This document shows, piece by piece, positions 49,584 through 51,529 of a DNA stretch of 64,000 bases; position 1 is the stretch's first letter; each line of letters opens with the position of its first letter. The notes beneath the pieces were generated by a model that saw only the letters and a program-made list of their open reading frames with translations, was not told the DNA's origin and did no database searches. A program made the translations under genes and the position numbers. The stretch comes from an uncultured Burkholderiales bacterium (lineage in GTDB: Bacteria > Pseudomonadota > Gammaproteobacteria > Burkholderiales > Burkholderiaceae_C). Where the stretch lies: positions 22,054 to 86,053 of the forward strand of contig CAITYM010000087.1 in NCBI GenBank assembly GCA_903896615.1. The letters run 5' to 3'.

Positions 49584-50233
49584 TTAAACAAATGAAAAAT
49601 AAACTCTCTTTAAGCTTAGTGCTTATTAGTTGCACGTTTCTAATCAGTGCTTGCGCACCTTTGATGCTTGGCGGCATGGCCGGGACTGTAGTGGTGGCTA
49701 CAGATAGAAGAACATCGGGTATTCAACTGGAGGATGAGGAAATTGAGCTGCGCGCGTCAGCTAGGATAAGAGATACGTTTGGTAATAAGGTTCATATAAA
49801 TGTAAACAGCTTTAACCTGCAGGTACTACTAACGGGTGAGGTCCCTTCGGACCGGGATAGACTAGCGGTTTTGAAAATTGTCTCAGAAGTTGAAAATGTA
49901 CGAAAAGTACTTAATGAGGTTGCTATCGGACCTAATTCAAGTTACGGCGATAGAACCCATGACATATTACTCTCAAGCAAAGTCAAAGCTGGAATCATTG
50001 ATGCACGCGATTTAATGGTTAACACATTTAAAATTGTTGCAGAGCACGGAAATATTTATTTAATGGGCCGCGTTACACCAAATGAAGCCAACAGAGCTAC
50101 AGAGATTGCAAGGAATGTGAGTGGAGTGAATCAAGTAGTGCGCGTATTTCAACTCTTAACCGAAGAAGAGCTACGAGCGCTCAACCCGCCAGCTGCGACG
50201 GTAACGCAAACAGGCGCTACACAGGGTAAATAA
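49580..50233 (+). CDS. dolP: BON-domain outer-membrane lipoprotein (DolP-like)
   Basis: A 217-residue lipoprotein. The signal peptide and lipobox ISACAP (Cys about residue 25) precede two BON domains: about 55-125 (ELRASARIRDTFGNKVHINVNSFNLQVLLTGEVPSDRDRLAVLKIVSEVENVRKVLNEV) and about 130-195 (ILLSSKVKAGIIDARDLMVNTFKIVAEHGNIYLMGRVTPNEANRATEIARNVSGVNQVVRVF). DolP binds anionic phospholipids and supports outer-membrane integrity and BAM. Overlaps the upstream SIS gene (ATGA) and ends 2 bp before the structured element at 50236. Confidence 0.9.
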   Translation: MIKQMKNKLSLSLVLISCTFLISACAPLMLGGMAGTVVVATDRRTSGIQLEDEEIELRASARIRDTFGNKVHINVNSFNLQVLLTGEVPSDRDRLAVLKIVSEVENVRKVLNEVAIGPNSSYGDRTHDILLSSKVKAGIIDARDLMVNTFKIVAEHGNIYLMGRVTPNEANRATEIARNVSGVNQVVRVFQLLTEEELRALNPPAATVTQTGATQGK

Positions 50234-50235
50234 AA

Positions 50236-50482
50236 CACTGGGACTGCAATGTGGCGCGGTTAAAAGTTTACCGGCCATGGCGTAAAACCTGGTTCTTCAG
50301 GGCGGGGATAGACCAAGTCGAGGACGGCTATATCGGTGCAAGATACAAGAGGACTGTCTCAAATGCAAGAGGCATTCAACCACTGCCCAAGAGGCGAGAG
50401 CTGTTGAGGGTGCAATGAATTTGGTCTCAAGGCCTCAAAACTTGGGGTCGGGCAGGACACTCTAGAGCTAGAAGTCCCAGTG
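50236..50482 (+). ncRNA. candidate orphan structured RNA, HEARO/omega-RNA-like
   Basis: A gene-free 247-nt segment closed by a perfect 10-bp inverted repeat, CACTGGGACT (50236-50245) and AGTCCCAGTG (50473-50482). Inside I find CGGTTAA-AAG-TTTACCG (50257-50273), CCTG-GTTCTT-CAGG (50288-50301), AATGC-AAGAG-GCATT (50362-50376), GGCCTCAA-AAC-TTGGGGTC (50431-50449, two G-T), and two long-range pairs, AGACCAA/TTGGTCT (50310-50316 / 50421-50427) and CTGCCC/GGGCAG (50383-50388 / 50450-50455), which cross to form a pseudoknot. The sequence, including CGTAAAACCTGGTTCTTCAGGGCGGGG, resembles the HEARO RNA (IscB omega RNA) as I remember it, but no IscB gene is near. The match is from memory. Confidence 0.55.
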
Positions 50483-50614
50483 CTTCTCGCGCAAGCGCAA
50501 GCGTTAGCGTCAAGCTAACGTCAAGCTACCGTCGTTGTAAATATCAAGTATTCTCATTCCCTATTTGCCCACACGGCGTTGGCAAGGGGGCTTTGATGAC
50601 TTAATGTGTTCGAA
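50483..50614. other. gene-free flank with hairpin and short direct repeats
   Basis: Just 3' of the structured element lies CGTTAGC-GTCAA-GCTAACG (50502-50520, 7-bp perfect stem), two copies of GCGCAAGC-like units and two copies of CGTCAAGCTA. The remainder to the next gene (50615) has no ORF or strong terminator that I can see. It may be the other end of the same mobile-element relic, or a terminator-like structure. Confidence 0.4.
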
Positions 50615-51529
50615 TTATTTCAATCGTTTGATTAAACTGGATGTATCCCAACGATTGCCGCCCATATGCTGCACATCCGCATAAAACTGGTCCACAAGTG
50701 CAGTAACTGGAACCCGAGCACCATTTCGCTTAGCCTCATCCATTACGAGACCCAAATCTTTACGCATCCAATCAACTGCGAAACCAAAATTGAACTGATC
50801 TGCCACCATGGTTTTACCCCGGTTGTCCATTTGCCAACTTTGTGCAGCGCCTTTACCAATCACGTCCAAAACTAAATTCATATCTAGCCCAGCTTGGGCT
50901 CCAAAGGCAATCCCCTCGCTCAAAGCTTGAACCAAACCAGCGATGCAGATTTGGTTGACCATCTTTGTCAATTGACCGGCACCAGATTCACCCATTAAAG
51001 TGAATGCTCTAGAAAATGCAAGTGCAACGGATTTAACCGCTTCAAAAGGAGTCGCCTCCCCACCACACATAACGGTTAGTAAACCATTTTGGGCTCCGGC
51101 CTCACCCCCTGACACAGGAGCGTCAATGAAATGTACGCCCTGGGCCTTTGCAGCAGCGTGAATCTCCCTTGCGACATTGGCTGATGCGGTGGTGTGGTCA
51201 ACCAAAATTGAGCCCGATGACATTCCTGCTAATGCACCGTGTTCGCCAAAAATAACAGATCTCAAATCATCGTCATTACCGACACAACAAAAGACGATCT
51301 TTGAACCCAACGCAGCCTCCTTTGGGGTTGGAGCTGACTTAGGCGCTTTGGACGTTGAAAACTCTGAAATCCACGCTTTAGCCTTTGCAGGCGAGCGGTT
51401 ATAAACGGTCACGCTATGCCCAGCACTGGCTAGATGCCCCGCCATGGGATAACCCATGACGCCTAGACCGATAAAAGAGACTTGAGTGGATGTGGCTGGT
51501 TCGTAGGATTTAGGTTTGATACTTGACAT
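50615..51529 (-). CDS. 3-hydroxyisobutyrate dehydrogenase-family NAD(P) oxidoreductase
   Basis: A 304-residue beta-hydroxyacid dehydrogenase. Cofactor motif is FIGLGVMGYPMAGHLASAGHSVTVYNR at 19-45, the substrate-binding motif is FIDAPVSGGEAGAQNG, and the catalytic lysine in GAGQLTKMVNQ. Candidates are 3-hydroxyisobutyrate dehydrogenase, tartronate semialdehyde reductase and glyoxylate/succinic semialdehyde reductase; motifs do not decide. It faces the structured element with its 3' end. Divergent from the YggS gene across 117 bp. Confidence 0.88.
   Translation of the reverse strand: MSSIKPKSYEPATSTQVSFIGLGVMGYPMAGHLASAGHSVTVYNRSPAKAKAWISEFSTSKAPKSAPTPKEAALGSKIVFCCVGNDDDLRSVIFGEHGALAGMSSGSILVDHTTASANVAREIHAAAKAQGVHFIDAPVSGGEAGAQNGLLTVMCGGEATPFEAVKSVALAFSRAFTLMGESGAGQLTKMVNQICIAGLVQALSEGIAFGAQAGLDMNLVLDVIGKGAAQSWQMDNRGKTMVADQFNFGFAVDWMRKDLGLVMDEAKRNGARVPVTALVDQFYADVQHMGGNRWDTSSLIKRLK

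What the first reader, a model, noticed from the sequence alone, without database searches (positions are those of the whole stretch)
50236..50482. Orphan HEARO/omega-RNA-like structured element next to dolP
A 247-nt gene-free segment is closed by a perfect 10-bp inverted repeat and holds at least four local hairpins plus two crossing long-range pairs (AGACCAA/TTGGTCT and CTGCCC/GGGCAG), as expected for a pseudoknotted RNA. The string CGTAAAACCTGGTTCTTCAGGGCGGGG resembles, from memory, HEARO RNA, the guide RNA of IscB transposon nucleases. No IscB or TnpB gene is in the window, so this may be a stand-alone omega RNA or a decayed element that ends right at the dolP stop codon. If its 5' end follows IscB rules, the guide would be read from the 3' end of dolP.
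Basis: partly seen in the sequence, partly recalled or inferred. Interest (0 to 1): 0.78.

Follow-up and report, generated by a model that had tools for sequence, protein, structure and literature searches.

The report
Decayed TnpB-transposon remnant beside dolP
The structured, gene-free stretch after dolP is not a HEARO RNA but the worn-out shell of a small jumping gene of the IS200/IS605 family: its two ends and a trace of the guide-RNA part are left, while the transposase and nuclease genes are gone, which is an ordinary fate for such elements.

Summary
No Rfam family matches, and HEARO was not found in the genome (that search had no positive control). The 10-bp closing repeat is ordinary: 23 similar repeats occur in the window. 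The "HEARO-like" string at 50281-50310 is the left-end hairpin of IS200/IS605 elements, 93% identical to copies just upstream of tnpB elsewhere. The 3' part (50380-~50547) is the tnpB 3' end plus right end, the region that encodes TnpB's guide RNA (reRNA or omega RNA). A covariance model built without the window finds it at E=9e-15, its only hit in 64 kb; a model from intact tnpB loci alone finds its genus relatives but not the window copy itself. All 29 orthologous dolP loci checked lack it, while two congeners carry dispersed end-only copies. So this is a ~277-nt internally deleted, PATE-like element (50271-~50547). Its right-end hairpin is broken and its tnpB remnant frame-shifted, so it is most likely inert. 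The OMEGA intuition was partly right; the guide would lie 3' of the element, not in dolP.

The parts
50271..50547 (+). Whole element: internally deleted IS200/IS605 (tnpB-type) element, PATE-like, 277 nt; the right boundary is inferred by alignment (50524 is the alternative from the covariance model)
   Evidence: Left end by alignment to intact tnpB elements; right end by alignment to RE copies ending GTCAA; absent from 29 orthologous dolP loci
50267..50270 (+). TTTA preceding the left end, in the place of TTTA(T/C) in front of intact elements; presumed insertion target / TAM
   Evidence: Alignment A4: TTTAT in L005, L006, L008, L010, L016; TTTAC in the window, L025 and L029
50271..50325 (+). 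Left end (LE) with subterminal hairpin CCTGGTTC-TTCA-GGGCGGGG
   Evidence: 93% identity over 50281-50310 to LEs upstream of tnpB; same CCTGGTTCTTCAGG variant in G481 and G470 copies
50346..50379 (+). Further inner segment shared with one congener copy (G470, L076); likely tnpB-derived, identity not resolved
   Evidence: blastn 72% over 162 nt, L076
50380..50484 (+). tnpB 3' end / reRNA-encoding remnant, frame-shifted (EARAVE..MN in one frame, LGVGQDTLELEVPVLL in another); holds the GGGTC-GGGCAT-GACCC-type hairpin position of relatives at about 50445-50464
   Evidence: R2 covariance hit 50380-50524, E=9e-15, window not in the seed; relatives' reading EARAVER-VNKVSKKTGVGHDPLEVGIPVLP resembles the C-termini of intact TnpB L016 and L039
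50473..50547 (+). Right end (RE): hairpin 5' arm CCCAGTGCTT, inserted hairpin GTTAGC-GTCAA-GCTAAC (50504-50520), degenerate 3' arm and terminus TGTAAATATCAA (relatives GAGGATGTCAA)
   Evidence: Alignments; only 2 of 10 RE pairs are still standard in the window row, read from the alignment used
50236..50245 (+).
   Evidence: 23 such repeats in the window; no counterpart left of the LE in L086
50548..50567 (+). Sequence where a TnpB guide would be read if the reRNA were made (GTATTCTCATTCCCTATTTG); inferred only
   Evidence: Position follows from TnpB reRNA anatomy (PMC8612924) and the RE boundary

Best explanation
The segment is the remnant of an IS200/IS605-family insertion sequence of the tnpB type. 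It inserted 3' of a TTTA site about 34 nt downstream of the dolP stop codon, and its core (tnpA if present, and nearly all of tnpB) has been lost. What is left is the left-end hairpin, the last ~100 nt of tnpB that double as reRNA (omega RNA) scaffold, and a degraded right end: a PATE-like, non-autonomous element. When whole, such an element is excised and inserted as single-stranded DNA by the Y1 transposase TnpA, which recognises the end hairpins. The right end is transcribed with the tnpB 3' end into reRNA, whose guide is the flanking DNA beyond the right end. Shown here: the two ends, their pairing with tnpB in intact relatives, dispersal in congeners, and absence at orthologous loci. Inferred: that this copy once moved by TnpA, and that it is now inert. 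The RNA-like folding is explained by the hairpins of the two ends and the reRNA scaffold.
For: Left end: 50281-50310 is 93% identical to DNA 77 nt upstream of a transposase gene in E. coli plasmid NZ_CP075739 and 71 nt upstream of tnpB in a deltaproteobacterial contig. The same motif (87% over 30 nt) precedes an intact tnpB of the same order (L016). Right end: model R2, built without the window from congener copies plus two intact tnpB loci, gives its only hit in 64 kb at 50380-50524, E=9e-15. Model R3, built only from six intact tnpB loci, finds the congener copies L076, L085 and L075 (E=6.6e-14 to 8.9e-9). blastn: 77% over 137 nt to G481, E=5.4e-23. One congener copy (L086, G470) has both ends on a ~160-nt element. 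Single ends are dispersed in G481, G470 and the window's own genome (L002 left end only; L112 right end only, weak, E=0.006). All 29 orthologous dolP loci read (30 fetched, one being the own genome) lack it. Published precedent with the same anatomy and nearly the same length: 271-nt PATE-like IS605 remnant (PMC7290912).
Against: The window's right-end hairpin and terminus are so changed (TGTAAATATCAA versus GAGGATGTCAA) that the exact right boundary is uncertain (50524 or 50547). Model R3, from intact tnpB loci alone, does not reach the window copy directly; the link goes through the G481/G470 copies. No protein-family hit supports the tnpB remnant. No intact parent element with exactly this pair of ends was found in the genus. 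50316-50345 has no match.
Confidence: 0.93

Rival explanations
1. Orphan HEARO / IscB omega RNA.
For: Structured, ~250 nt, next to a gene; a remembered sequence resemblance only.
Against: No Rfam match at gathering threshold or at E<=10; no HEARO found in the genome (no positive control); the remembered string is an IS200/IS605 left end found before tnpB.
Confidence: 0.01
2. A mobile, non-autonomous element (PATE) still moved in trans by a TnpA, i.e. not yet dead.
For: Both ends kept; several dispersed end-bearing copies in G481 and G470; Y1 transposase remnants occur in G481 and G470, and an intact one next to tnpB in G050; a Y1 match exists in the own genome.
Against: The window copy's right-end hairpin has lost most pairs and its terminus is changed. 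The own genome's better Y1 match carries three stops, and the other is a weak hit in a longer frame. No two near-identical copies were found, as recent movement would give.
Confidence: 0.04
3. A stand-alone TnpB guide RNA: the element is transcribed (for example as dolP 3' UTR) and its reRNA is used in trans by a TnpB, or kept for regulation.
For: The reRNA-encoding region is the best-preserved inner part. Three G481 copies begin at about the same inner point, CACTGC. The stem at columns 69-86 of A1 is 94% paired with changes on both sides at three pairs. No terminator was predicted between dolP and the element. A tnpB 3' end sits at a contig start of the own genome (L108), so a TnpB could be hidden by assembly.
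Against: No TnpB domain was found in the own genome or in G481 above threshold, and only a fragment in G470. The terminal hairpin next to the guide is broken in the window copy. Three of five covariation measures were reached by more than 5% of shuffles, so selection on structure is not demonstrated. The sequence is confined to this lineage.
Confidence: 0.03
4. An unrelated new structured RNA gene whose resemblance to IS ends is chance.
For: Low folding energy (z=-3.46).
Against: Both halves independently match the two ends of the same IS family, in the right order and orientation.
Confidence: 0.01

Closest known systems
PATE-like IS605 remnant of Halanaerobium hydrogeniformans (PMC7290912)
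   Same: Left-end hairpin, no tnpA, last stretch of tnpB, complete right end; 271 nt versus about 277 nt here
   Different: Different host and IS subfamily; the right end is degraded in the window copy and carries an extra inserted hairpin
PATEs (palindrome-associated transposable elements) of Haloquadratum walsbyi (PMC3119063)
   Same: Transposase-free, without terminal inverted repeats, near-terminal palindromes like those of IS605-type elements, attributed to core deletion
   Different: There present in many copies, some nearly identical; here one copy with both ends plus scattered single ends
IS200/IS605 tnpB elements in the same order and genus (L016 in G063; L039 with tnpA in G050)
   Same: Left-end hairpin behind TTTA(T) (L016) and a right end of the form ..GGAATCCCCGTCCTT..GAGGATGTCAA; similar TnpB C-terminus (..AGHCPLVAGIPVL)
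   Different: They keep intact tnpB (and tnpA in G050); the L039 left end is of a different sequence type
TnpB reRNA / omega RNA (ISDra2; PMC8612924)
   Same: The same part of the element (tnpB 3' end plus right end) encodes it
   Different: No TnpB beside it, expression unknown, terminal hairpin broken
HEARO RNA (RF02033), IscB omega RNA
   Same: Both belong to transposon-encoded guide-RNA systems in the broad sense
   Different: No covariance-model match; HEARO/IscB guides are at the 5' end (established knowledge), this class has them at the 3' end

Membership tests
IS200/IS605 family, PATE-like non-autonomous element | Subterminal hairpin at the left end matching an autonomous member | tested here: met
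IS200/IS605 family, PATE-like non-autonomous element | Right end matching an autonomous tnpB member | tested here: met
   R2 hit E=9e-15 with the window left out of the seed; R3 from intact tnpB loci reaches the congener copies, though not the window copy directly
IS200/IS605 family, PATE-like non-autonomous element | Right-end hairpin intact (needed for activity, not for origin) | tested here: not met
   The window row keeps 2 of 10 pairs in the alignment; relatives L076 and L016 keep all or nearly all. This speaks against activity, not against origin
IS200/IS605 family, PATE-like non-autonomous element | No terminal inverted repeat, no target duplication, insertion 3' of a fixed short target | tested here: inconclusive
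   TTTA precedes the left end as in intact elements; no clean empty site because the dolP spacer differs among relatives
IS200/IS605 family, PATE-like non-autonomous element | No transposase gene, several dispersed copies | tested here: met
   most copies are single ends, one congener copy has both
TnpB reRNA (omega RNA) | Derived from tnpB 3' end and right end, guide from the 3' flank | tested here: met
   Homology of position only; transcription not tested
TnpB reRNA (omega RNA) | A cognate TnpB in the cell | tested here: inconclusive
   No PF07282 domain above threshold in the own assembly, but a tnpB 3' end of another type sits at a contig start (L108)
TnpB reRNA (omega RNA) | Expressed as an RNA bound by TnpB | not testable with these tools
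   No expression data
HEARO (RF02033) / IscB omega RNA | Match to the covariance model | tested here: not met
HEARO (RF02033) / IscB omega RNA | iscB gene downstream | tested here: not met
   Downstream is a convergent dehydrogenase-like gene, 50615-51529 minus strand

The most novel reading that the evidence does not exclude
The element is a domesticated stand-alone TnpB guide RNA, transcribed from dolP read-through and used in trans by a TnpB encoded elsewhere; the three G481 copies that start at the same inner point would then be solo guide-RNA genes.
Probability: 0.03. Interest if true: 0.55.

Novelty: new member of a known kind. Interest (0 to 1): 0.2.

Why it matters
It shows that structured intergenic segments which look like new RNAs can be the hairpin ends of lost IS200/IS605 elements, and that left ends of this family can be mistaken for HEARO by eye. 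The dispersed end-only copies in two congeners are a small natural set for asking whether TnpB guide RNA segments outlive their nuclease gene.

Tried and rejected
Rfam search of the whole window and, with loose thresholds, of 50180-50620: no hit at the element. Genome-wide HEARO search: none, but no control rang. PF07282 in the own genome: none; at E<=1 only a 17.6-bit match inside a 992-aa frame outside the window, taken as chance. Hit rejected as chance: L004, 24 nt inside a receptor-type gene. Protein-family search of the three forward frames: only spurious weak hits. Exact degenerate pattern in viral contigs: none; in genome contigs: one, which is a tnpB element. The closing inverted repeat as a MITE-type terminal repeat or retron-like stem: rejected because such repeats are common in the window and the left arm lies outside the left end. 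Crossing pairs as a conserved pseudoknot: rejected, not kept in relatives. Bridge RNA of an IS110-type element: considered because L002 has an IS110-type transposase fragment nearby; no such gene was seen beside the window element.

Full report
Observation. The inverted repeat, the hairpins and the two crossing pairs are in the sequence as described, and the segment folds better than dinucleotide shuffles (z=-3.46). But perfect 10-bp inverted repeats at that distance occur 23 times in the window, and the crossing pairs are not kept in relatives.

HEARO test. cmscan of the window gives only a tRNA. A loose scan of 50180-50620 gives nothing up to E=10. RF02033 is not found in the genome, although no control genome rang, so that genome-wide negative is weak by itself.

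What the HEARO-like string is. A distant blastn of the segment against plasmids hits 105 records; all 20 listed ones cover the same ~30 bases, 50281-50310. In E. coli plasmid NZ_CP075739 this stretch lies 77 nt upstream of a transposase gene whose product carries the TnpB zinc-ribbon pattern. In a deltaproteobacterial contig it lies 71 nt upstream of a tnpB. In AP026530 it lies some 500 nt before an annotated transposase; I take the stretch between to be a divergent tnpA, as in IS609-like elements, but did not test that. In a genome of the same order it precedes an intact tnpB (L016). These have TTTAT in front, and the window has TTTAC. This is the left-end hairpin of IS200/IS605 elements. A second, solitary copy sits elsewhere in the window's own genome (L002).

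The 3' half. In 84 genomes of the genus, two (G481, G470) carry strong relatives of 50346-50520 at dispersed places. The ones examined (L075, L076, L087) lie between ordinary genes without a transposase beside them. These copies end in GAGGATGTCAA or a close variant, behind a hairpin GGAATCCCCGTCCTT...AAGGTCGGTGAGG, as the 3' ends of intact tnpB genes do in L016, L022, L037, L039, L015 and L018. The relatives' reading frame EARAVER-VNKVSKKTGVGHDPLEVGIPVLP resembles the TnpB C-termini of L039 (AAEAKADEPVLNEAKAEAGHGLPAGGIPAL) and L016 (LAGAGHCPLVAGIPVL). In the window this reading is split over two frames.

Independent test. A covariance model from four congener copies and two intact tnpB loci, without the window, finds 50380-50524 as its only match in 64 kb (61.1 bits, E=9e-15). 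A model from six intact tnpB loci alone finds L076, L085 and L075 with E-values from 6.6e-14 to 8.9e-9, and other copies more weakly; the window copy itself is not reached by it, so its link to intact tnpB ends goes through the congener copies. E-values of these models are rough.

Insertion. In 29 orthologous loci of the same genus the spacer after dolP is short (often holding a hairpin) and then the convergent dehydrogenase-like gene begins; none has the element. The closest two (82% and 80% protein identity) confirm this in alignment. A clean empty site cannot be read because the spacers have diverged.

State of the copy. Most right-end pairs and the terminal GAGGATG are lost in the window copy, and the tnpB remnant is frame-shifted. 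No TnpB domain is found in the own assembly. The Y1-transposase matches there are one with three stops and one weak. However, a tnpB 3' end of another type lies at the very start of an own contig (L108), so a TnpB of a different subgroup may be hidden by the assembly.

Covariation. In the nine-sequence alignment the inner stem is 94% paired with three pairs changed on both sides. The right-end stem is 68.5% paired, lowered by the decayed copies. The true register beats all slid registers on percentage paired and covariation score, but the shuffle controls are only moderately exceeded (11 to 135 of 500 shuffles reach the observed values). I do not claim proven selection on RNA structure.

Mechanism. 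By established knowledge of the family (PMC8612924), TnpA excises and inserts the element as single-stranded DNA using the end hairpins, 3' of a short target. TnpB reRNA is made from the tnpB 3' end and right end and takes ~16 nt of 3' flanking DNA as guide. The window copy keeps the outline of these parts but neither gene. It fits the published PATE-like remnant of Halanaerobium, 271 nt with left-end hairpin, last 58 nt of tnpB and right end (PMC7290912).

Verdict.

Noticed in passing
L002:1501-1544 (G000:C17:4666-4709): A solitary IS200/IS605 left end in the own genome, about 300 nt from an IS116/IS110/IS902-type transposase fragment (PF02371, E=2.8e-5).
   Followed up: partly
L108:1-139 (G000:C73, contig start): 3' end of a tnpB of a different type with an intact right end (AATCCCCTGCCTTTAGGCAGGGGAGGATGTCAA) at a contig end of the own genome: a TnpB gene may be lost in an assembly gap.
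   Followed up: partly
L112 (G000:C30:33442-33581): Weak, solitary right-end copy of the same family in the own genome (E=0.006).
   Followed up: partly
L075, L083, L085 (G481): Three solo right-end units that all begin at about the same inner point (CACTGC.CAGGAGG), with unrelated DNA upstream; the shared start is unexplained.
   Followed up: partly
L006:3001-3030 and L007:3001-3043 (Serratia and Acetobacter plasmids): Left-end hairpins with no transposase annotated right after them, possibly solitary ends too; the gene table of this collection is incomplete.
   Followed up: no
L039/L115 (G050:C82): Apparently complete IS605 element with intact tnpA (150 aa frame) and tnpB (391 aa frame) in the same genus, whose right end is of the same type as the window's.
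   Followed up: partly
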